NCBI RefSeq assembly: GCF_000316665.1
Contig: NC_019678.1
Span: forward strand, 3,410,001-3,474,000
Direction: 5' to 3'
DNA length: 64,000 nt
Source: Rivularia sp. PCC 7116
GTDB lineage: Bacteria; Cyanobacteriota; Cyanobacteriia; Cyanobacteriales; Nostocaceae
In this document: one piece after another, positions 25,809 to 51,109 of the stretch
Numbering within the stretch: position 1 is the first letter of the stretch
Layout: every line of letters begins with the position of its first letter
Translations under genes and position numbers: made by a program
The notes under the pieces: model-generated
What the model was told of the DNA's origin: nothing
Seen by the model: the letters and a program-made list of their open reading frames with translations, nothing else
The model's database searches: none

Positions 25809-25973
25809 GGGGGAATTGGTAATTGGTAATTGGTGAGAGACGGGAGAGAGGGGGGAGAGGGGGAAGAGTGGGAAGAATTAATTATTTAAACTCCTAACTC
25901 CCAACTCTTAAACTGTTAACTGATAATCCACACCCTTTGAATGAATAACTGATAACTGTTCACTGTTCACTGA

Positions 25974-41222: not shown

Positions 41223-41264
41223 TAGGGCATAAATTCAACATCATTTCTCCCCTCTCTCCCCCCT

Positions 41265-43547
41265 CTACCCCCTCTCCCCCTGATTTTTTGCTGCTGCACG
41301 CACAACTCGATTCCCGTCGCGGGCTAAAGCTGCGCGTATCTCGGTGGGGGTATTGGGATTTTGAGCGATTGCGTATCTTTCTAACCACGATGAAGAATAA
41401 ATATTTTGCGCTAATATTTCGCTTGGTGTGGAAGGATTTAAGAAAACGAGCAAGCGGGTAAATATTGGAGTGAAAGAAGTAATACAGTCTGCTAAGTTTT
41501 TACCGAGTTTATCTGGAAAACGATTTATCAAAGCTTTGGCTGCTGCTTGTTTAATTTGATTATCTGGCTTTCCTAAAATGGCTAGTTGTTCAAGAATATT
41601 CAAAGACGTGTTGGGATGAGAAGCAACAGCGACAACAATTTGATTATCTTTATCTATTGCTAATAGCTCTAACAAACTACTAGGAGTATGGGGATTTTCT
41701 GCGACACCCAAACGTACCATACTAATTTTGTCTTCTGCTAACTGCTTGAGCAAATTTTTGTCCGTATTGGGATGACGTGCAACCCCCTGACGTGTTATTA
41801 CGCATTTACTGTTAGCAAGTTGATTAAGAGTTTGCCCAGATGTGTTGGGATTTTTAAGAATGCTAAGCTCTTCTAAGATGCTTGAGGGAGCGTAAGGATT
41901 GTTTATTGCTGCTTCTCTTACCGTTGCATGTTTGTCTTGAATCAGTTGTATAAGAGCTTCGAGGGGAGTTTTGAGATTTTTCGCGACTATGGTACGTACT
42001 TCCCAACGATGATGTTTTGCTAACTGTACGAGTGTTTTACTAGAAGTATTGCGATGACGAGCTACAGCAGTACAAACTTTTAAATCGGAAGTTTGCGCTA
42101 GACATTGTAAAGTACTATCGGGTGTTTTGGAATTACGGGATAGATTACTTAAGGCAGTTTCTAAAATCGAATTATTTTCTTTATCAACAAGTTGCTCTAA
42201 AACGCGAATCGGAGTATTAGGATGCTGTGCGACTCTTTGACGGGTATCATAATTACTACTTTCTGCCATTGCCGTTAATAAGTTTGGATCGTAAACGGCG
42301 TATGCTGGCATAATTGGTATACCTTGAGCGCGGGCTGTATTTATATAGTCGTGTATTGTAGTTTTCTGCCCATCAAAACTATTGGTTGCCGGATTATTGG
42401 GGTGAGCCGCGATAATTTTACTAATCCAAGCATCATTATTATCTGTAGCTAATTGCTCTAAGGCTTCTGCGGTTGAATTTACGTTTAGCGCTACAGCTTT
42501 GCGTACCATGATATCCTCATCGCTAGCTAATCGTAACAACACATCCCCAGGAGTATTGGAATGTGCTGCAACACCCAAACGAATCCGCATCCATTGACTT
42601 GTAGAAAGTTGTCTGAGAATATCAACCGATGTGACTGGATTTTCAGTTGCTTCTAATTGGATTTGAAACTGTTGGTGTAAAGTTAAAGGTGTATGGGGAT
42701 GATAAGAAACCGCTTCTCGTACAATATCGCTAACATCTCCCATTAAATCTTCAACAATTTTTATCGGAGTACGAGGATTTTGAGCAACCATTGCCCGCAC
42801 TCGACTATAACTATCCCCAGCCAAATTTTCCAAAATTTGTTCCGAAGTGTTGGAACTTTCTGCAATATGCAAACGCACCTCAGCATCAAGGGTTTTTAGC
42901 AGATATTCCGGCACCGCACCAATTGCCCAAAGATACATTTCAGATTGGCGATCGCGTGGTAAATTTGTAGTTTGCATTGCCGAGATTGCAGTTTCATGCC
43001 ATCCCTGCGGCATTTCTCCAGCTAAAGTAACGTGCAACTTCGCAGCTTCAACAACTTCTATATTTTGTACTTTCGTCAATGCCTGCAAAGCGTATAACGG
43101 TGTTTTAGAATTCATGGCGATGGTTAATAGCACTTCCACATCATCATGATTGCTGGCTAATTGTAGAAACTGGGGTGAAACCTCATCAATTTTTAACAAA
43201 GAAAGCAAGGTAGCAACAGGAATATCAGCGACAAAGTTGGGATTTTCTAGCAGCAGTAAAGAAAACACCGGATTCTCTAATAGCTGCTGGGGAAAATCTG
43301 CACCCAACTCGAATAAAATGTCTGTTGGCGTGTTGGGATTACCGGTAATATTTGCCCGAATAATTCTATCCGATTCACTACTCAAATTCCGCAAAAAATC
43401 TGGAGCAGTATTTGCATTATTCGCTACAATTCTTGTTAATTCAATATTAATATTTGATAGCTCTTCTAATCGCTGTGGCGAAATATTTTCGCTTGCTGCT
43501 TCTTGCCGAAGTTGTGATAAATTCGGGTGTGATAAACGATTAGCCAT
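41265..43547 (-). CDS. Leucine-rich-variant (LRV) repeat protein, long paralogue
   Basis: 760 residues built almost entirely of ~24-residue LRV/HEAT-like helical units with consensus VAxNPNTPxxxLxxLAxDxxxxVR (for example VRLGVAENPHTPSSLLELLA). These stack into a right-handed superhelix used for protein binding. No enzyme motif, signal peptide or cysteine cluster is visible, so the Fe-S cluster of the Azotobacter LRV protein is absent. The N-terminal ~130 residues share a specific block with the second LRV protein (NPNTPTDILFELGADFPQQL, NPVFSLLLLENPNF), showing they are paralogues. The repeat pattern is interrupted once at ~385-420 by a non-repeat stretch (TIHDYINTARAQG). It is transcribed toward the DUF4139 gene, 750 bp downstream of the MoxR/VWA unit on the same strand. 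Confidence 0.88.
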   Translation of the reverse strand: MANRLSHPNLSQLRQEAASENISPQRLEELSNINIELTRIVANNANTAPDFLRNLSSESDRIIRANITGNPNTPTDILFELGADFPQQLLENPVFSLLLLENPNFVADIPVATLLSLLKIDEVSPQFLQLASNHDDVEVLLTIAMNSKTPLYALQALTKVQNIEVVEAAKLHVTLAGEMPQGWHETAISAMQTTNLPRDRQSEMYLWAIGAVPEYLLKTLDAEVRLHIAESSNTSEQILENLAGDSYSRVRAMVAQNPRTPIKIVEDLMGDVSDIVREAVSYHPHTPLTLHQQFQIQLEATENPVTSVDILRQLSTSQWMRIRLGVAAHSNTPGDVLLRLASDEDIMVRKAVALNVNSTAEALEQLATDNNDAWISKIIAAHPNNPATNSFDGQKTTIHDYINTARAQGIPIMPAYAVYDPNLLTAMAESSNYDTRQRVAQHPNTPIRVLEQLVDKENNSILETALSNLSRNSKTPDSTLQCLAQTSDLKVCTAVARHRNTSSKTLVQLAKHHRWEVRTIVAKNLKTPLEALIQLIQDKHATVREAAINNPYAPSSILEELSILKNPNTSGQTLNQLANSKCVITRQGVARHPNTDKNLLKQLAEDKISMVRLGVAENPHTPSSLLELLAIDKDNQIVVAVASHPNTSLNILEQLAILGKPDNQIKQAAAKALINRFPDKLGKNLADCITSFTPIFTRLLVFLNPSTPSEILAQNIYSSSWLERYAIAQNPNTPTEIRAALARDGNRVVRAAAKNQGERG

Positions 43548-44296
43548 AGCGAATAATTAATCAATGATATAGAATAAAATGTATATTTTCTGAAGCTGAC
43601 TATTATATAATTTCTCGTATTTATACAGAATTGGTCAAGAGTAAATATTGCAATACCAATTGTAGTTTTTAACTAAATAAAGTGATGCGAAACACATTTG
43701 CATAAGTTTAAAGTATATCGAATTATATAAATATTCTCTGGATTTAGGATTGTTTTCAGTAGCGATACCAACTAAATTTATAAAATATTAGCTATTCCCG
43801 TGCTTGGTATGCAGTATTAAATAGTCTGGAAAGAATAAATCGACAAAGAGAAATCAGGAAACTGAGGAAGAAAGCGATATTAGCTAGTTACATCATTAAG
43901 GTAAATATATAATCCATTGATGATAGTTACAGCACTTTACAGACAAATAAGGATTTTCCTTATTCTTTATTAAAAATAAACTGTTTTGCTTTTGGAGTCT
44001 GAATACAATTTGTCATAATATCTCTTTCTTCTACTGCTGGTGTTGCAATTTACAAAGCAATTATAAAATAGCGCTTTCACGCTTATTGGAATATAAATTA
44101 AACCTCACCCCTTCTCTTTCCTTATTAAGGAGAATAGGACGGGGTGAGGTTTCGAGTGTATTAGATTCAACTGAAAAATGCTATCTCTTTGAATTGCTCC
44201 GCACGGCGAACAAAGGCATTTGTCCTTTTACAAGCAATTAACCGAACTTAATATCACCAATTACCAATTACCAATTACCAATTCCCTATTCCGTAT
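43548..44296. other. Non-coding gap within the LRV/MoxR cluster
   Basis: 749 bp, AT-rich. It contains a perfect 12-bp inverted repeat at 44100-44152, a dispersed repeat around 44195-44255 and GGTAATT-type units just before the VWA stop codon (44262-44285). It includes the promoter side of the long LRV gene, implying that gene has its own promoter. No coding signal. Confidence 0.55.
44100..44152. repeat. Palindromic dispersed repeat
   Basis: AAACCTCACCCC and GGGGTGAGGTTT are perfect 12-bp inverted arms around a 29-bp centre. One arm of the same family occurs at 20263-20274 after metF. Confidence 0.75.
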
Positions 44297-45517
44297 TTAA
44301 ACAGATAACAACCGCACAGCTTCCCCAAAAGGAAATTCTTCTAAAGCCAAACCACCCGGAGTCACTACCCATAAAACTGGTAATTCTGGTGCTTTATCGG
44401 GAAAATTACCGTACCCATCAGTCAAATAAACGCATACTCCCTGGGTTTGCCCATCCCATGTTTGAGCAACTTTATCAAAGAAAGGTACAAATGACGTACC
44501 GCCGCCACCTTGGGGCTTCGGCGGCATGGAATCGGCATTAATTTCGTAAGGTCCGTAAACTTCAGCATCAACGTAATAAAACTCACATTTGATATGTGGG
44601 TAAGAACTTAAAATACCCTGCACTTCCGAGAAAAACAAACCTAACAATTTTGTATCAATTGAGCCACTGGTATCCAAAGCCAGGTAAACGCGAATCGATT
44701 CCCCTTGCAAACTTTCTAGATACAGCCTGCGTCCAATAAAGCGCCTATCAAAGCCAGAAAAATCAGTAGGAGTTTGTACTAAATATCGCCAAAGGTAAGA
44801 GCGCCAATCAATTTGAGCAGAATTTAAAGTTTCTAATTCTCGCTCTACTCCTCCCCCAAGACTACCTTTATTCGCAGTGCGAGCCACAGTAGCAGCTTGC
44901 TGCATCGCATTCCGCCAATGAGCTTCCATTGTGGCTTTTTTAGCTTGGGACATACTATCCCCTGTTGGGGAATTATTTGGAGAACTTTGTCCTTTCCCTT
45001 CCTTATCTTCGCCTTCCTGACTTTCTCCTTGACTACCTTGTTGTTGGGAACCACCAGCATCTTCTGGTGGGCTATCAAGTAAATCTGGATTGGTTAATTG
45101 TGGGGCATTATCGGCATCTTGAAGCAGAATTTCATAAACTTCTTCAACACTTAAATTTTCTAAATTAACTTCTCTTAAAGTTCCTTCGGGTAACTCAAAA
45201 CCATGAGCCGCAATCATACCGTTGATTACAATATCAGCAGCAATATTCCACAACTGAGCATCTCTCACACCCCGACGCGGTACATGAAGCAGCGCTGCAT
45301 GAAGCACTTCGTGTAGTAAAACCCCATCAAGTTGTTTTGGTGGCAAAGATAACAAAAACTCTACATTATAAAAAATATCTTTACCATCAGTTGCCGCAGT
45401 TGGTAATTTTTCTGTAGGAACAAAACGAGCAAACATCGCCAAAGTTGCGAAAAAAGGCGATTTTGTTTGCAAGCGTAACAAAGACGCGCTGATACTTTTT
45501 TGAATATCTTCAGTCAT
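44297..45517 (-). CDS. Putative zincin metallopeptidase fused to a VWA-like domain (DUF2201)
   Basis: 406 residues. The N-terminal ~140 residues are the DUF2201 metallopeptidase-like domain with an HExxH zinc motif HEVLH at 69-73. An acidic, Gln/Gly/Ser-rich linker spans ~140-190. The C-terminal half is a von Willebrand A-like domain with an intact MIDAS start DTSGS at 282-286 and a second acidic cluster (VYLTDGYGNFP) for metal-dependent ligand binding. Proteins of this class work with MoxR AAA+ ATPases as substrate adaptors or chaperones. Here the MoxR gene lies 204 bp upstream on the same strand and LRV proteins flank the pair. The HExxH motif suggests catalysis, but no activity has been shown for the family as far as I know. 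Confidence 0.9.
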   Translation of the reverse strand: MTEDIQKSISASLLRLQTKSPFFATLAMFARFVPTEKLPTAATDGKDIFYNVEFLLSLPPKQLDGVLLHEVLHAALLHVPRRGVRDAQLWNIAADIVINGMIAAHGFELPEGTLREVNLENLSVEEVYEILLQDADNAPQLTNPDLLDSPPEDAGGSQQQGSQGESQEGEDKEGKGQSSPNNSPTGDSMSQAKKATMEAHWRNAMQQAATVARTANKGSLGGGVERELETLNSAQIDWRSYLWRYLVQTPTDFSGFDRRFIGRRLYLESLQGESIRVYLALDTSGSIDTKLLGLFFSEVQGILSSYPHIKCEFYYVDAEVYGPYEINADSMPPKPQGGGGTSFVPFFDKVAQTWDGQTQGVCVYLTDGYGNFPDKAPELPVLWVVTPGGLALEEFPFGEAVRLLSV

Positions 45518-45721
45518 GATAAAGAGTTAGGAATAAGTAAGGTTAAAGGTTAAAAGTCAAAGGTCAAAGGTGAGGAGTTAAAAGTCACTAGTTAAGAGTT
45601 AAGAATTAAGAATTACTAACAGCATTAACAGTTAATAATAAAAACTTGACTGACTGCATTTATTCAGGTGAAAGCATAAATTTAACTAACATTTACCTTT
45701 AACCTTTAACCTTTGACCTGT

Positions 45722-46723
45722 TTAAGGTTTCTGCGATTCTAGATACTCTTGCAGTAGTTTCTTGAATTCTGGTTCTTTACTTAATAAATTAGCTAAAACT
45801 CCTCGCTTGCCTTTACTTTCCATAGTTCGCGATAAGTCAACAGCAAAAAGTCTTACCCATTCGTTTGCTGCAACTTGATTTAACCAGTTGAAGGCATTAA
45901 GGGCTTGATTTGCATTCTCGGCACGTACTGTTAAGCCAATTACCGTTGCATATCTGACACTAGGTTCTTTAGGAAATTGAATGCTTTCGCCTTTACCTGA
46001 CAAAATCGCAATCAAATTAGGTAGATTTTCGTACATCGAAATGTATGAAGAAAACTCAGTTGCAGCAGCAGTACCAACTGCTGGATTAATGTCTAAACCG
46101 GCAAAATGTAACGCACTTGCCATTACCCAAGAACGAGGAGAAGGCCAAGCTGGCTGTTGGGGGTCGATTTTATGCAATAAAGTTGTACGGAAAGAAAGAA
46201 AAGCGATTATCTGCTCGTGTACTCCTTTATCTAAAGCAAAAGCTTTGAAGCTGTCAAAATCTGGCTGTACTTCCAGATGCAAAAATCTATTTGCTAAAGG
46301 TGAAGGCATATCAAATACAGCAGCACGATCTTCTTTGCGGTTCCCTGCTGCCCATACATACCAACCATCCGGAACTTCGTAGGAACCTACACAGCGGTCT
46401 AAAATTAGCTGTTGCGCTACTCCCTGCATTGCCGGAGGAGCCATATTCAATTCATCAAGGAATAATATACCTTTACCTTTACGAGGCAAAAATTCCGGTG
46501 GAAACCATTTAGAAATACCGCTCTCGGCAACCGGCAAACCCCGTAAATCAGTAGGTGCTAACTGAGATAGCCGTACATCTACAAAATCAATGTCGCTTTC
46601 TTTTGCTAATTGACCAACAATACTAGACTTTCCAATACCGGGAGGTCCCCAAATCATCGTACTGATTTGAATATTATTAGTTAGGAGCTGCTCTAAAAAT
46701 ACTTTGAGTTCGCTGGGAGTCAT
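45722..46723 (-). CDS. MoxR-type AAA+ ATPase
   Basis: 333 residues. Walker A GPPGIGKS at 26-33, Walker B LFLDELN with Asp90-Glu91, sensor-1 AAGNRKED around residue 126-132 and the MoxR-typical SPLANRFLHLEV arginine-finger region at ~141-152 are all present. MoxR ATPases form hexamers that remodel or load cofactors onto partner proteins with VWA-domain adaptors. It sits between an LRV gene (108 bp upstream) and the zincin-VWA gene (204 bp downstream) on one strand, so a three-gene operon is likely. A heptamer array fills the gap to the LRV gene. Confidence 0.93.
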   Translation of the reverse strand: MTPSELKVFLEQLLTNNIQISTMIWGPPGIGKSSIVGQLAKESDIDFVDVRLSQLAPTDLRGLPVAESGISKWFPPEFLPRKGKGILFLDELNMAPPAMQGVAQQLILDRCVGSYEVPDGWYVWAAGNRKEDRAAVFDMPSPLANRFLHLEVQPDFDSFKAFALDKGVHEQIIAFLSFRTTLLHKIDPQQPAWPSPRSWVMASALHFAGLDINPAVGTAAATEFSSYISMYENLPNLIAILSGKGESIQFPKEPSVRYATVIGLTVRAENANQALNAFNWLNQVAANEWVRLFAVDLSRTMESKGKRGVLANLLSKEPEFKKLLQEYLESQKP

Positions 46724-46731
46724 AAGATTTC

Positions 46732-46806
46732 AGTTAGGAGTTAGTGGTTAGTAGTTAAGAGTTAGTAGTTAGTAGTTAGTAGTTAGTGGTTAGGAGTTAG
46801 TTGTTG
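46732..46806. repeat. Short tandem repeat array (GTTAGTA / GTTAGGA heptamers)
   Basis: About ten consecutive 7-mers between the MoxR start codon and the LRV stop codon. It abuts the MoxR gene, so the MoxR leader starts inside it. Confidence 0.85.
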
Positions 46807-46831
46807 AGAATAAAGATTTTTTCTCCCCCCT

Positions 46832-48619
46832 CTACCCCCTCTCTCCTCTCTTCCTCAAGGAGCGCTTTGCAGATTTGGAAACAACGGGGTCTTCATCCTC
46901 GGCAAGATGTTCTAAAATTTCTACAGGAGTGTCTGCATGTCTGGCGACAAATAGTCTTTCGGTTTCGACAACACTGGTAGAAAATTCTTCTAATAACCTC
47001 TGCCGCAATTGAGGTGGGCTGTTAGGATGCTGTACTATATACCAGTCGTATCGGAAGAATTGCGTGAGTTGCTCTAATGCTGTTGCAGGGGTGTTGGGGT
47101 TTTGAGCAATAAACGAACGTAAATGCCAATCTTTAATTAAAATTTCTAAAATATCCCCAGGCGTTTGAGGATTTTGAGCCACAGCTTGACGCACTTCCAA
47201 TCGCCAATCTTCAGCCAGTTTTTTCAAAATGTGGGGAGGAGTGTTAATATTTTTTGCCACACCATAACGCACATCTTTGGATGTATCTTTGGCAAGTTCT
47301 TCTAAAATCCTGGATGGAGTGCGAAAATTTGAGGCAATCCACGGGCGTAATTCCGGCGAACTTTTAGCCCACTGCGTCAAAATAGACACTGGTGCCTGGT
47401 TGTGCTGGGCTACATATTTGCGAACAGATAAACGCTCATCCAATGCCAAACGCCACAATACTTTTTGCAAAGTACTGCTTGAAGTATTCGGATGACGCGC
47501 TAACAACAAGTCATGAAACGGAGTGCTACCCAATATATCCAAGACATAGCCTGGAGTATTGGCATTTCTTGCTACAGCAGCCTGTATATCTCCCCGGCTA
47601 TCCATTGCCAATTCTTGAAGTGTAGATGCAGGGGTATTTGGATTTTCAGCTACAAACTGCCGTAGTTCCAAATTATTTGCCGCTAGTACAAGTAAATGCG
47701 CTGGTGTATTGGGATGCCTTGCCACCATTTGACGCACTCTTTCGTTGGGATGTTCTGCCATTTCCTCTAACCAACTGCTGGGAATGTGAGGATTTTGGGG
47801 CAGAAAATTCATCGTATGTACCCGATAATCCATTGCCAATTCGATTATCAGATGCTTTGTTAAATCGGAACGTTTTGCGATCGCGTTCTTAACTTTGGTG
47901 TAAGGTACCTTAATTAATGCTTGGAGAACATTTAGCGGCGTGTTGGGATTTTTGGCAATACTAGTTTCAATAGCTACCCTTAAATTCCAGTTCGGTTCTG
48001 GATTTTCCACTAAAATTTCCAAAACCCTGACAGGAATTTTTGGATATGTAGCCAGATGCAAACGAACCGAACCCGCACCATGTTGAGCTAACTTTTCCAA
48101 AACTGTTTGCGATACATCTTTGCGTTGTGCAATACATAAACCCAATTCTGGATCGTACCTACTCTTAATTGCCAGTTGTACCAGAACTTGTTCTGAAGCA
48201 TGTTTGTGTTTGGCTACAGCTTCCAATACCAAAGAATTGGCATGCATTGCCGCACAAGCTAAGAACCATTCTGGTGCATCATCCTGTTTTAACAGTTTTA
48301 ACAAAGACCAATATGATATATCTGTTGCTAAATTGGGATTTTCTAACATTAATAGGGATAAAACCGGATTCGAGAAAAATTGTTGAGGAAAATCCCCCGC
48401 TAATTTCAACAGTACGTCAGTTGGTGTATTGGGATTTTTTGCCACACCTTCACGAGTAACCTTATCTTCACTCGATGCCAACTCCCCTAATAAATCCGGT
48501 TCTGCGCTGGGATTTGTAGCTACTAACCTTGCAAGTTCTACACTTTCATAAGCAAGAATTCTCAGCTTATTTGGTGGAGTCGTTTCGTCAGCTGCAAGTT
48601 GTTCTGGGGTTGGGTACAT
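46832..48619 (-). CDS. Leucine-rich-variant (LRV) repeat protein, short paralogue
   Basis: 595 residues of ~24-residue LRV/HEAT-like units (VAxNPNTPxxxLxxLAxD), like the 760-residue protein, with which it shares the N-terminal block NPNTPTDVLLKLAGDFPQQF, NPVLSLLMLENPNL. No signal peptide or catalytic motif. It is the first gene of the apparent LRV-MoxR-zincin/VWA unit (gap to MoxR 108 bp). An extended helical superhelix of this kind would suit a substrate-recognition or scaffolding role for the ATPase; that is inference from context. The basic C-terminus ends SAKRSLRKRGERG, nearly the same terminal GERG as the longer paralogue. Confidence 0.88.
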   Translation of the reverse strand: MYPTPEQLAADETTPPNKLRILAYESVELARLVATNPSAEPDLLGELASSEDKVTREGVAKNPNTPTDVLLKLAGDFPQQFFSNPVLSLLMLENPNLATDISYWSLLKLLKQDDAPEWFLACAAMHANSLVLEAVAKHKHASEQVLVQLAIKSRYDPELGLCIAQRKDVSQTVLEKLAQHGAGSVRLHLATYPKIPVRVLEILVENPEPNWNLRVAIETSIAKNPNTPLNVLQALIKVPYTKVKNAIAKRSDLTKHLIIELAMDYRVHTMNFLPQNPHIPSSWLEEMAEHPNERVRQMVARHPNTPAHLLVLAANNLELRQFVAENPNTPASTLQELAMDSRGDIQAAVARNANTPGYVLDILGSTPFHDLLLARHPNTSSSTLQKVLWRLALDERLSVRKYVAQHNQAPVSILTQWAKSSPELRPWIASNFRTPSRILEELAKDTSKDVRYGVAKNINTPPHILKKLAEDWRLEVRQAVAQNPQTPGDILEILIKDWHLRSFIAQNPNTPATALEQLTQFFRYDWYIVQHPNSPPQLRQRLLEEFSTSVVETERLFVARHADTPVEILEHLAEDEDPVVSKSAKRSLRKRGERG

Positions 48620-49290
48620 GAGTGCTAACCTACCTCTTGCTTAGATGTATTATTTTATTCTGTTATTTATAGTAATTTCTAGTAAAAAAGCTACATTTTT
48701 ATGCTTAGTAGTAAATTACTTTGACTATAGAAAATTAAGAGTTATTTAAGTTACTTTAATAAAATAATTATCTTTAAATTACTTAGATAAATAGACTCAA
48801 TTGTCACGTTTGAATAGCTAAATCGAAATTGTACAAAGTTTATATAAAGAAAATTATAGGTAAGTTTAGCCAGCATAAATTTGATAATGACTTGTCGCAT
48901 ACAAAGTGTTTATGGATACTTATAATATTTACGAAAAACAAGTATTCATATTTCTTTTTCTCCTTTTTTTTTTTAATCAATCAGTCAACTATTGATGTAA
49001 TTTGAATTATTTTTAACATCTTCTATATTCTCGCTTAGGAATAAATTCCCAAGCTAATATACAAAGTCGTCTAAAGACGACTGGGAAAAGGTTTGAGTTT
49101 TCAGTGCGTTTTAACGCACTTAGCTTATGAGCCTTTAACCTAGTCCCCAGGCTTAACCTGGTTCCCAGTCTGAGCCTGGGAACTAGCTTTTAGAGGCTCT
49201 GCCTCCGATTATTGCAATTGGTGCAAGATGTGAAATCAATCAGTCTTAAAGTAAGGATTTGAAAAGAAGCGGAGGAAGAATTTTGATTAG
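48620..49290. other. AT-rich gap with dispersed repeats
   Basis: 671 bp. The left ~430 bp is AT-rich and should contain the promoter of the LRV-MoxR-VWA unit. At 49060-49215 lie several short palindromic repeats (GTCGTCTAAAGACGAC, GTGCGTTTTAACGCAC, CCCAGGCTTAACCTGG, CAGTCTGAGCCTGGGAAC, AGAGGCTCTGCCTC), related to those at 20340-20466. No gene. Confidence 0.55.
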
Positions 49291-49530
49291 CTATTTTTTC
49301 CTATTAGCTATCAGCCAACCTACAGCAGTAAAGAATAAAGTTGCTGCAATGCTGATAAATAAAGAAGCGTAAAACGGATGTAGTGGTTTATTAAAAGATA
49401 AATTTAAATCTACAGGTTGGTTGATTTTCTCGATATGTTGCACAATTATACCGGAAATAATTGCACCACCACCAAGCCCAATACCGAGTATTTGTACTGT
49501 GTTATTGAGAGAGCGATCGCGTGCGGTTAA
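49291..49530 (-). pseudogene. 5'-truncated remnant of a two-helix membrane protein
   Basis: The minus-strand frame reads LTARDRSLNNTVQILGIGLG, GGAIISGIIVQHIEKIN, then a second hydrophobic helix (PFYASLFISIAATLFF, TAVGWLIAN) and RKK-stop. It has no ATG, and an in-frame stop precedes it, so the N-terminal part is missing. The organisation and the positive-inside RKK end look like a genuine C-terminal membrane domain. Family not recognised. Confidence 0.6.
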
Positions 49531-49594
49531 TCATTCTTATTTACCAAACGCAATAAAAACCTAAACAATAAAATAAACAACTAAAAAAACAACT

Positions 49595-51109
49595 ATGACA
49601 TTCCGCGAAGAGTTTAAATTACTATTACGCGCTCGCTACTCCTTAATTTACATTCCTACTCACGAAGAAGAGCGTTTAGAAGCCGTAATTAGAGAAGAAG
49701 CAGCCAAACAAGGTAATCGTCAGGTATACACTTGGGATTTTGTAGATGGTTATCAAGGTAATCCTAACGACGAGGGTTTTGGAAGACGCAACCCATTACA
49801 AGCTTTAGAATTTGTAGAAAAGTTACACGCCTCCGCACCGGCTGTATTAATTCTTCGGGATTTTCATCGGTTTTTAGATGATGTAGCCATTTCCCGCAAA
49901 CTCCGCAATTTAGCACGCTTACTAAAATCGCAACCAAAAAATATTGTTTTACTCTCGCCACGGGTTGCCATTCCCGACGATTTAGCTGAAGTGCTGACAG
50001 TGGTAGAATTCGCTTTACCCAACAGTACAGAAATCCAAACCGAAATCGAAAAACTATTAACCGCGACTAATAATTCTCTACCAAATCAAGTTTTAAATGA
50101 ATTAGTGCGGGCAGCCAGAGGCTTGAGTATGGAGAGAATTCGCCGGGTTTTGTCCAGAGCGATCGCTGCACGTGGAGAATTACAATCGGATGACGTGGAA
50201 TTAGTTTTACAGGAAAAGCGTCAAACCATCCGCCAAACTCAAATCCTCGATTTTATTCCCGCCACAGAACAAATTTCTGACATTGGTGGATTGGATAACC
50301 TCAAAGATTGGTTATTAAGAAGAGGCGGTGGTTTCAGCGAAAAAGCCAGACAATACGGTTTACCCCATCCTCGCGGTTTGCTATTAGTAGGAATTCAAGG
50401 TACCGGTAAATCATTAACCGCTAAAGCCATAGCCCATCACTGGCATTTACCTTTACTACGTTTGGATGTAGGAAGATTGTTTGGCGGTTTAGTCGGTGAA
50501 TCGGAATCCCGCACCCGTCAAATGATACAGGTATCCGAAGCCCTTGCACCTTGCATTTTGTGGATAGATGAAATAGATAAAGCATTTTCCGGGCTTGGTA
50601 GCAAAGGCGACGGAGGAACCACTAGTAGAGTATTCGGTACCTTTATCACCTGGATGGCAGAAAAAACTTCACCCGTATTTGTAGTTGCCACAGCCAATGA
50701 GATTCAAGAATTACCGCCAGAATTACTACGTAAAGGTAGATTTGATGAAATATTCTTTGTCGGTTTACCCATCCAAGAAGAAAGAAAAGCCATTTTTAAC
50801 GTGCATTTATCGCGATTGCGCCCCCACAATATTAAAGAATACGACATTGACAGATTAGCCTACGAAACACCCGATTTTTCCGGCGCGGAAATTGAGCAAA
50901 CATTAATTGAAGCCATGCACATTGGCTTCAGCCAAAACCGCGATTTTACTACAGACGATATTTTAGAAGCTGCCAGTCAGATTATACCTTTAGCCAGAAC
51001 TGCTCAAGAAAAAATCGAGCAGCTACGTCAATGGGCTGCTTCAGGAAGGGCACGTCTAGCCTCAAAGCACAACCCCTTGAACGATAGGATTCAAAGACAG
51101 TTGCAGTAA
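49595..51109 (+). CDS. ycf46: Ycf46-like AAA+ ATPase
   Basis: 504 residues. The first ~230 are the Ycf46-type N-terminal domain (FREEFKLLLRARYSLIYIPT; EERLEAVIREEAAKQG). Then comes a FtsH/CDC48-type AAA+ module with Walker A GIQGTGKS at 266-273, Walker B CILWIDEIDKA with the DE pair at ~326-327, sensor VVATANEIQELPPELLRKGRFDEIFF and a C-terminal helical lid (DFSGAEIEQTLIEAM). Plastid and cyanobacterial Ycf46 is soluble. In Synechocystis it has been linked to CO2 utilisation (recalled, not checked), which would fit the nearby inorganic-carbon genes. It is divergent from the LRV-MoxR unit. Start chosen at ATG 49595; no strong Shine-Dalgarno is visible. Confidence 0.9.
   Translation: MTFREEFKLLLRARYSLIYIPTHEEERLEAVIREEAAKQGNRQVYTWDFVDGYQGNPNDEGFGRRNPLQALEFVEKLHASAPAVLILRDFHRFLDDVAISRKLRNLARLLKSQPKNIVLLSPRVAIPDDLAEVLTVVEFALPNSTEIQTEIEKLLTATNNSLPNQVLNELVRAARGLSMERIRRVLSRAIAARGELQSDDVELVLQEKRQTIRQTQILDFIPATEQISDIGGLDNLKDWLLRRGGGFSEKARQYGLPHPRGLLLVGIQGTGKSLTAKAIAHHWHLPLLRLDVGRLFGGLVGESESRTRQMIQVSEALAPCILWIDEIDKAFSGLGSKGDGGTTSRVFGTFITWMAEKTSPVFVVATANEIQELPPELLRKGRFDEIFFVGLPIQEERKAIFNVHLSRLRPHNIKEYDIDRLAYETPDFSGAEIEQTLIEAMHIGFSQNRDFTTDDILEAASQIIPLARTAQEKIEQLRQWAASGRARLASKHNPLNDRIQRQLQ

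What the first reader, a model, noticed from the sequence alone, without database searches (positions are those of the whole stretch)
41265..51109. LRV-repeat proteins clustered with MoxR, a zincin-VWA protein and a Ycf46-type ATPase: possible undescribed ATPase system
Seen: on one strand a 595-residue LRV protein, a MoxR ATPase and an HExxH-plus-MIDAS VWA protein lie in tandem with 108- and 204-bp gaps. A 760-residue LRV paralogue follows 750 bp on, and a second AAA+ (Ycf46-like) is divergent. The two LRV proteins share an N-terminal block and C-terminal GERG, so they are paired parts rather than chance neighbours. Established: MoxR plus VWA proteins form ATP-driven adaptor/chaperone pairs. 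Inference: the long LRV superhelices are recognition or scaffold components, and the zincin is a conditional protease.
Basis: partly seen in the sequence, partly recalled or inferred. Interest (0 to 1): 0.75.

Follow-up and report, generated by a model that had tools for sequence, protein, structure and literature searches.

The report
LRV-repeat partners of a MoxR-zincin-VWA machine
A cyanobacterial gene cluster pairs long repeat-solenoid proteins with an ATP-driven motor and its metal-binding partner; the same set recurs in several bacterial phyla, so it looks like a real but uncharacterised molecular machine rather than chance neighbours.

Summary
In detail: LRV595, MoxR, an HExxH+MIDAS VWA protein and LRV760 lie on the minus strand as stated. 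The link is not chance. Of 87 non-redundant VWA loci, 66 have MoxR and 52 an LRV gene within the fetched flank, in five phyla, two of them by one contig each. Where MoxR and VWA are apart, MoxR still has an LRV gene directly upstream in 7 of 8 loci. MoxR is in 33 of 36 genomes with full-length VWA and 1 of 255 others. Most LRV proteins of these loci share an N-terminal module (FPxxLLxNPVFxLLLLENP); 14 of 19 LRV ORFs from elsewhere lack it, but 22 genomes without full-length VWA carry it too. Corrections: the Ycf46-like AAA+ is a universal neighbour; the shared GERG tail comes from a G-rich repeat across the stop codon. Best reading: LRV proteins are exchangeable adaptors, or else dedicated clients, of a MoxR / zincin-VWA remodelling machine. 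Defence is less likely: genes under purifying selection, no known effector or third component. A new variant of a known kind.

The parts
46832..48619 (-). LRV595: leucine-rich-repeat-variant solenoid protein, 595 aa, first gene of the tandem
   Evidence: searches (ORF; PF01816 E 7.5e-51, PF25591 E 1.5e-30), dN/dS 0.09-0.12 against five relatives
48242..48481 (-). N-terminal module of LRV595 (residues 47-126) with the FPxxhhxNPhhxLLhLExP motif
45722..46723 (-). MoxR-type AAA+ ATPase, 333 aa; Walker A GPPGIGKSS, Walker B-like ILFLDELN
   Evidence: motif columns across 24 aligned sequences; only PDB match of the profile at E 1e-4 is midasin
44297..45517 (-). DUF2201_N zincin-like domain + low-complexity linker + C-terminal VWA domain, 406 aa
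45299..45313 (-). HEVLH (HExxH) motif, residues 69-73 of the VWA protein
   Evidence: sequence; His69, His73, His78 and Asp95 in 36 of 36; Glu70 in 34 of 36
44660..44674 (-). MIDAS DTSGS, residues 282-286 of the VWA protein (with T341 and D367)
   Evidence: (D282, S284, S286 and D367 in 36 of 36; T341 in 34 of 36, S in one, A in one)
41265..43547 (-). LRV760: second LRV solenoid protein, 760 aa, 749 bp downstream of the VWA gene
   Evidence: dN/dS 0.16-0.18 against three relatives
43146..43385 (-). N-terminal module of LRV760
   Evidence: G000:C1:3453146-3453385, E 3.5e-31
49595..51109 (+). Ycf46-like AAA+ ATPase, judged NOT part of the module
46822..46846 (-). G-rich repeat that encodes the GERG end of LRV595 and continues past its stop codon (a like copy at 41260-41279 ends LRV760)

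Best explanation
The cluster is a self-contained molecular machine. SHOWN: MoxR and the zincin-VWA protein are a tightly co-occurring gene pair, and LRV proteins, most with a common N-terminal module, are its most frequent further genomic partner. INFERRED: MoxR forms an ATP-driven hexamer; the VWA protein binds it and grips a partner through its MIDAS metal; the LRV proteins dock through their N-terminal module (its conserved Glu is a candidate MIDAS ligand) and use the alpha-superhelix to choose and hold target proteins. ATP hydrolysis remodels the bound target, working through the flexible linker between zincin and VWA domain, and may let the HExxH domain cut it. One machine would serve several exchangeable LRV adaptors (two here; seven tandem LRV ORFs in L069).
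For: Conserved neighbourhood: 52 of 87 VWA loci with LRV, 66 with MoxR; the loci were fetched by VWA similarity, so not selected for LRV. LRV genes of at least 120 aa lie on the VWA strand in 92 of 99 cases; of 49 direct tandem pairs LRV-MoxR, MoxR-LRV or LRV-VWA the median gap is 58 bp, and 14 touch or overlap, 8 of them by exactly 4 bp. LRV stays with MoxR where VWA lies elsewhere (7 of 8 loci, gaps 19-280 bp). MoxR with full-length VWA: 33 of 36 genomes against 1 of 255. Module: once per protein in 70 of 72, Glu in 64 of 72; module with full-length VWA 31 of 36 against 23 of 255 genomes. Several module-bearing LRV genes per genome (7 matches in G008, 11 in G247 at dispersed sites). Purifying selection on all four genes. 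The domain-linker-VWA layout resembles NorD, whose linker is remodelled by NorQ (PMC13036017, abstract).
Against: No contact, expression or activity has been measured. NorQD acts on a client enzyme, so LRV could likewise be the client. 23 of 255 genomes without full-length VWA have a module match (22 without one generic-repeat match), and 21 of these 22 have no MoxR match; of ten such loci fetched some hold short or split LRV ORFs, others long ones (417-791 aa). All 8 Chloroflexota genomes searched that lacked LRV near VWA have no LRV match anywhere. In the Rivularia clade the module is not more conserved than the array: in LRV760 module dN 0.19-0.21 against array 0.13. The catalytic Glu is absent in 2 of 36. 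The Glu of the module as MIDAS ligand is a guess.
Confidence: 0.46

Rival explanations
1. LRV proteins are the dedicated clients: MoxR and the zincin-VWA protein fold, assemble or metallate the LRV (or pentapeptide) solenoid, which is itself the working protein, as NorQD does for nitric oxide reductase.
For: NorQD remodels its client and MIDAS grips an acidic surface residue of it (PMC9976466 passages). LRV-MoxR linkage persists where VWA has moved away. Some orphan LRV genes in genomes without MoxR-VWA are short or split, as expected of clients without their chaperone. A pentapeptide-repeat protein lies beside VWA in 8 loci without LRV nearby (regex call; Pfam check of one, L118); of 6 such genomes searched 5 have no LRV match, while a seventh (G249, L125) has an LRV-type locus elsewhere and the eighth was not held.
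Against: Some orphan LRV proteins are long without the machine. Several divergent LRV paralogues per MoxR-VWA pair fit adaptors better than a single client.
Confidence: 0.3
2. It is a conflict (anti-phage or anti-invader) system of the MoxR-vWA ternary type, with LRV arrays as sensors and zincin-VWA as the executioner.
For: MoxR-vWA ternary conflict systems occur in multicellular prokaryotes (PMC7159879 abstract and sections; PMC8195603 passages). Patchy distribution (40 of 291 genomes); LRV number, order and strand vary; a DpnII-type restriction pair sits between VWA and LRV760 in close relatives.
Against: No effector, or protein other than LRV as third component, among the six window proteins. 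dN/dS 0.03-0.18 with no gene-wide positive selection. The VWA tree separates Cyanobacteria from the other phyla, although phyla mix among the others on long branches. No PADLOC model matched LRV, MoxR or VWA. The PADLOC near/far neighbour comparison is inconclusive: 61 families near, 25 far, none hitting more than 2 of 120 near or 4 of 120 far ORFs.
Confidence: 0.18
3. Chance neighbours: the four genes have no joint function.
For: MoxR and VWA domains are widespread (recalled); the gaps of the tandem hold short heptamer repeats, and promoter- and terminator-like sites are not above shuffles.
Against: Recurrence across phyla and the co-occurrence statistics.
Confidence: 0.01

Closest known systems
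NorQ-NorD (and CbbQ-CbbO, recalled in detail): MoxR-VWA couples that remodel enzymes
   Same: MoxR AAA+ with a partner made of an N-terminal domain, a flexible linker and a C-terminal MIDAS-bearing VWA domain (PMC9976466 passages)
   Different: Here the N-terminal domain is a DUF2201_N zincin-like domain, and the recurrent partner is an LRV (or pentapeptide) repeat protein
MoxR-vWA ternary conflict systems (VMAP, iSTAND, FtsH, beta-propeller, TERNS3 types; PMC7159879, PMC8195603)
   Same: MoxR + vWA pair with a third conserved component; reported mainly from multicellular prokaryotes, cyanobacteria among them
   Different: Third component is a stand-alone LRV protein; no effector fused after the vWA domain. 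'LRV' and 'DUF2201' do not occur in the main text of PMC7159879; 'LRV' does not occur in PMC8195603 (DUF2201 not looked for there)
Azotobacter vinelandii LRV protein (PDB 1LRV; recalled, no call)
   Same: LRV repeats forming an alpha-superhelix (recalled)
   Different: The recalled protein has a cysteine-rich N-terminal 4Fe-4S domain; LRV595 has 2 and LRV760 4 scattered cysteines; phmmer of LRV595 against PDB sequences gave no hit at E 0.01
FtsH-type AAA+ metalloprotease (recalled)
   Same: ATPase plus an HExxH zinc-protease motif
   Different: Motor and zincin are separate proteins, and the AAA+ is MoxR-like

Membership tests
MoxR AAA+ / VWA chaperone couple | MoxR-like AAA+ ATPase with intact Walker A/B | tested here: met
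   PF00004 and PF07728 above cut-off, PF07726 (AAA_3) below its own; G26, P28-S34, F88, E91 invariant and D90 nearly invariant in 24 aligned sequences
MoxR AAA+ / VWA chaperone couple | Linked or co-occurring VWA protein with complete MIDAS (DxSxS-T-D) | tested here: met
   D282, S284, S286, D367 in 36 of 36; T341 in 34 of 36; MoxR in 33 of 36 genomes with full-length VWA
MoxR AAA+ / VWA chaperone couple | VWA finger entering the pore of a MoxR hexamer | not testable with these tools
MoxR-vWA ternary conflict system (Kaur et al. 2020) | Third core component VMAP, iSTAND, FtsH or beta-propeller | tested here: not met
   None reported by Pfam at E 0.001 for the six window proteins (whether Pfam holds every one of these models was not checked). 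Over 87 loci the recurrent extra families are LRV (52), pentapeptide (17) and SDR (10)
MoxR-vWA ternary conflict system (Kaur et al. 2020) | Effector domains fused C-terminally to the vWA domain | tested here: not met
   DUF2201 VWA match ends at residue 403 of 406
MoxR-vWA ternary conflict system (Kaur et al. 2020) | High variability, lateral transfer and patchiness | tested here: inconclusive
   Patchy (40 of 291) and variable LRV number, but purifying selection; VWA tree separates Cyanobacteria from the rest but mixes other phyla
Zincin metalloprotease | HExxH motif | tested here: met
   Glu in 34 of 36, both His in 36 of 36; PF13203 E 1.1e-38
Zincin metalloprotease | Peptidase activity | not testable with these tools
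   Needs enzymology
LRV repeat family PF01816 | Repeats above curated cut-off | tested here: met
   (194 and 167.5 bits; cut-off 21.6)
Azotobacter-type 4Fe-4S LRV protein | N-terminal cysteine cluster (recalled) | tested here: not met
   Cys at 122, 162 (LRV595) and 482, 492, 582, 688 (LRV760) only
Ycf46-like AAA+ as member of this module | Conserved linkage to LRV-MoxR-VWA | tested here: not met
   Orthologue in 20 of 20 genomes; within the fetched flank of 4 of 87 loci, plus one (G172) about 6.6 kb from MoxR, outside the stretch fetched

The most novel reading that the evidence does not exclude
A so far undescribed class of ATP-dependent targeting machine: a MoxR motor and a zincin-VWA protease served by a set of exchangeable LRV superhelix adaptors that plug in through one N-terminal module, comparable in logic to ClpXP adaptors or cullin-ligase receptors, and in some lineages re-fitted with a pentapeptide-repeat solenoid or an SDR enzyme.
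Probability: 0.26. Interest if true: 0.82.

Novelty: new variant of a known kind. Interest (0 to 1): 0.6.

Why it matters
Few papers on bacterial LRV proteins turned up, and none on the DUF2201 zincin-VWA family in the searches made. A conserved genetic link between them, with a definable docking-like module, turns both into a testable system: what does the motor act on, and do LRV proteins choose it? If LRV proteins are adaptors, bacteria have an exchangeable-receptor system built on MoxR rather than on Clp or Lon; if they are clients, MoxR-VWA chaperones have a new class of client.

Tried and rejected
Rejected: (1) Ycf46-like AAA+ as a component. (2) GERG as homology: the DNA GAGAGGGGGTAGAGGGG runs across the stop in both genes, a near copy lies at 25843 away from the LRV genes, and the five aligned LRV595 orthologues end otherwise; the exact 20-mer of LRV595 occurs once in the genome. 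(3) Gene-wide positive selection on LRV. (4) 4Fe-4S LRV type.

Inconclusive: defence-gene enrichment. PADLOC was run on 120 ORFs within 2.5 kb of the core genes and 120 at 5 kb or more, drawn at random from 255 and 141 that met a filter of 150-700 aa; the filter dropped large proteins such as the 1156-aa TPR-CHAT protein of L082. Near: 61 families, only 25 shown, at most 2 members each; far: 25 families, at most 4 members each. How many ORFs matched in each set is not given, so neither enrichment nor its absence is shown.

Led nowhere: PDB sequence searches with the VWA profile (0 hits at 0.01) and LRV595 (0 hits); promoter/terminator scan (17 and 9 sites, shuffles 22.6 and 7.5). No search for expression data of this organism was made. 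A wider search for a diversity-generating retroelement was not made either.

Literature: MoxR+VWA+LRV gave 0 papers. Further listings: 13 papers; 8; 3; DUF2201 or MoxR, 15 of 310 listed, none of the 15 with DUF2201; 9; 15 of 28 listed; Rivularia terms with MoxR, 10 of 40 listed, none of the 10 with MoxR. In these listings and in the passages read I saw no description of this triad; DUF2201 alone was not searched and most subscription papers are not in the library, so absence from print is not proven.
Full report
Setting. The window is G000:C1:3410001-3474000 of a genome of 8,728,773 bases in 3 contigs. The closest relatives of its VWA gene are in Rivularia sp. MS3 (96%) and Calothrix parasitica NIES-267 (95%) (both nearest in the tree). 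That the genome is Rivularia sp. PCC 7116 is my recollection from its size, not a tool result.

Observation. The four minus-strand genes and their gaps (108, 204, 749 bp) are as described. Pfam gives LRV for both repeat proteins, DUF2201_N + DUF2201 for the third, and AAA/AAA_5 for the MoxR-like one, with AAA_3 below its curated cut-off. NCBIfam has no match at E 0.001 for LRV760, MoxR or VWA and only a weak one far below cut-off for LRV595; PADLOC matches none of the four. In the whole genome PF01816 matches five places at E 0.001, all inside these two genes.

Conserved neighbourhood. The VWA protein was searched in 291 genomes of the order: 40 match, 36 with a long VWA protein and 4 with open frames of only 48-95 codons. 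Neighbourhoods of those loci and of the best 80 of 148 relatives in a named genome collection were scanned with phmmer. Of 117 loci with VWA, 87 remain after removing copies at least 97% identical (one of the 87, L078, holds only a 95-codon piece). 66 have MoxR and 52 an LRV gene within the fetched flank, which is often cut short by contig ends. The loci were chosen by VWA similarity alone. In the VWA tree LRV loci occur on both sides of the split between Cyanobacteria (64 rows) and the rest (23 rows: Deinococcota, Chloroflexota, and one contig each of Armatimonadota and Verrucomicrobiota); the root is a midpoint and several long branches meet. LRV genes of at least 120 aa share the VWA strand in 92 of 99 cases, and 14 of 49 direct tandem pairs of LRV with MoxR or VWA touch or overlap, 8 by exactly 4 bp (a few larger overlaps reflect my longest-ORF starts). 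Order varies: LRV-MoxR-VWA, MoxR-LRV-VWA, MoxR-VWA-LRV, and one LRV gene antisense between MoxR and VWA (L066/L108).

The split test. In 8 genomes whose VWA gene is not next to MoxR (by matching contigs: six Chamaesiphon, Calothrix NIES-3974, Hyella), MoxR lies elsewhere; 7 of the 8 MoxR loci have an LRV gene directly upstream in tandem with gaps of 19-280 bp, and the eighth, on a short contig, has a 160-aa open frame there that phmmer did not call. LRV-MoxR linkage therefore does not depend on VWA linkage.

Co-occurrence. MoxR (E 1e-45) is in 33 of 36 genomes with full-length VWA and 1 of 255 others; in that one (G322) the contig ends just after MoxR. The three without MoxR are G180, G221 and G271. 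PF01816 is in 25 of 40 VWA-matching genomes and 16 of 251 others.

A module shared by the LRV partners. 127 of 171 LRV ORFs (fragments and duplicate loci included) carry [FYW]P..[VFLIM]..NP. In 72 windows left at 80% identity the block reads NPNTPxxxLxxLGxEFPxxLLxNPVFxLLLLENP, occurs once per protein in 70, starts between residues 37 and 97 in 68, and keeps the Glu in 64. Of 19 LRV ORFs fetched from places without MoxR or VWA beside them, 14 lack it (L170-L173, L175-L178, L181-L183) and 5 have it: L174 and L184-L186, whose genomes have VWA elsewhere, and L180, whose genome has no VWA match. A profile of it (A5) matches 54 of 291 genomes: 31 of 36 with full-length VWA and 23 of 255 others; one of the 23 (G054) is a partial, generic-repeat match. 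Of the remaining 22, 21 have no MoxR match. Ten of these orphan loci were fetched: some hold long LRV genes (417, 440, 440, 791 aa), others short or split ones. The module is thus strongly but not strictly tied to MoxR-VWA. The five VWA genomes without it are G109 and G229 (MoxR match broken or partial), G259 and G271 (66% and 77% complete drafts) and G310.

Replacement and additions. A pentapeptide-repeat protein (called by a regular expression; Pfam-checked for L118) lies within two genes of VWA in 8 loci without LRV nearby and 4 with LRV; the 8 fall on two branches of the tree. Of 6 of those 8 genomes searched, 5 have no LRV match and one has matches in large 824-1345-codon frames; a seventh has an LRV-type locus elsewhere (G249), the eighth was not held. 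A short-chain dehydrogenase lies beside the module in Cyanobacteria (VWA-penta-SDR) and in Ktedonobacteria (SDR-LRV-MoxR-VWA) at about 45% identity; it is in 7 of 33 VWA genomes and 1 of 33 others (Fisher p 0.054) and not in the window's genome. The 8 Chloroflexota genomes searched because they lacked LRV near VWA have no LRV match at all, so LRV is not obligatory.

Selection. Against close relatives dN/dS is 0.05-0.08 for MoxR, 0.03-0.08 for VWA, 0.09-0.12 for LRV595 and 0.16-0.18 for LRV760; the neighbours Ycf46 and MuiA give 0.03-0.05 and 0.17. The LRV genes are kept by selection and evolve faster than the motor, without a gene-wide sign of an arms race. Against a simple 'fixed module, variable array' picture, module and array have similar rates in this clade: LRV595 module dN 0.01-0.08 against array 0.03-0.08; LRV760 module dN 0.19-0.21 against array 0.13.

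Motifs. His69, His73, His78 and Asp95 are in 36 of 36 aligned VWA proteins, Glu70 in 34; MIDAS D282, S284, S286 and D367 in 36, T341 in 34. One Chloroflexota protein (L148) lacks both the Glu and the MIDAS Thr. A low-complexity stretch separates zincin and VWA.

Mechanism. In NorQD the VWA domain is proposed to grip an acidic patch of its target through MIDAS while a finger enters the MoxR ring (passages of PMC9976466), and NorQ activity remodels the linker of NorD (abstract of PMC13036017). Applied here: MoxR drives, the VWA protein grips, and the zincin may cut. I read LRV proteins as exchangeable adaptors because several paralogues with one shared N-terminal module serve a single MoxR-VWA pair; the rival that they are clients is close behind. 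Sequence alone cannot settle it.

Known systems. The MoxR-vWA ternary conflict systems of Kaur et al. (PMC7159879: abstract, passages and sections 6 and 8 seen) and their extensions (PMC8195603, passages) share the pair but differ in the third component; LRV is not mentioned in either main text, DUF2201 not in the first (not looked for in the second). PMC10907252 and PMC12691664 (passages) treat MoxR/VWA loci linked to diversity-generating retroelements; no reverse transcriptase is among the six window proteins scanned, but no wider search for one was made. The PADLOC near/far comparison is inconclusive.

Corrections to the finding. The Ycf46-like AAA+ is not part: its orthologue is in 20 of 20 genomes searched and within the fetched flank of 4 of 87 loci, with one more (G172) about 6.6 kb away. 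GERG is a repeat artefact.

Noticed in passing
L085:11378-13427, L086:9809-11933, L087:11466-13355: A DpnII-type restriction enzyme and a Dam-like methyltransferase lie between VWA and LRV760 in close relatives (a shortened form in L088) and are absent from the window, where the gap is 749 bp.
   Followed up: partly
L116:12561-13742, L121:12386-13660, L128:12361-13583, L144:4966-6723, L153:4635-6389: A short-chain dehydrogenase with an extra N-terminal part is linked to the module in both Cyanobacteria and Ktedonobacteria (about 45% identity); 7 of 33 VWA genomes against 1 of 33 others.
   Followed up: partly
L170:6825-13603, L175:9009-13016, L176:9277-13251: In three genomes of one genus without MoxR or VWA matches, a Ycf46-like paralogue is followed by LRV genes that lack the N-terminal module: another AAA+/LRV pairing.
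   Followed up: no
L171:7050-11198, L172:7533-11483, L173:6153-10013, L181:1845-5978, L183:6320-10501: A separate family of 1286-1393-aa LRV proteins, each followed by a gene for a 280-364-aa protein with a start like MxPxTxQLLxTLEVL, without MoxR-VWA beside it.
   Followed up: no
L082:756-6314: A TPR-CHAT gene (1156 aa), a small gene and a 485-aa gene without a Pfam match lie between the Ycf46-like gene and LRV595 in Rivularia sp. MS3; the window has 975 bp there.
   Followed up: partly
window 45539-45615 and 46732-46805: Heptanucleotide tandem repeats fill much of the two gaps of the tandem (AAGGTCA, GAGTTAA, AGTTAGT types).
   Followed up: no
L146:6061-8994: In a Gloeobacterales genome a PAS histidine kinase/response regulator (977 aa) overlaps MoxR by 4 bp, in the place where LRV often lies.
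   Followed up: no
L109 and L162; L163-L169: In Calothrix NIES-3974, Chamaesiphon and Hyella the LRV-MoxR pair and the VWA gene lie at different places of the genome yet all are kept.
   Followed up: yes
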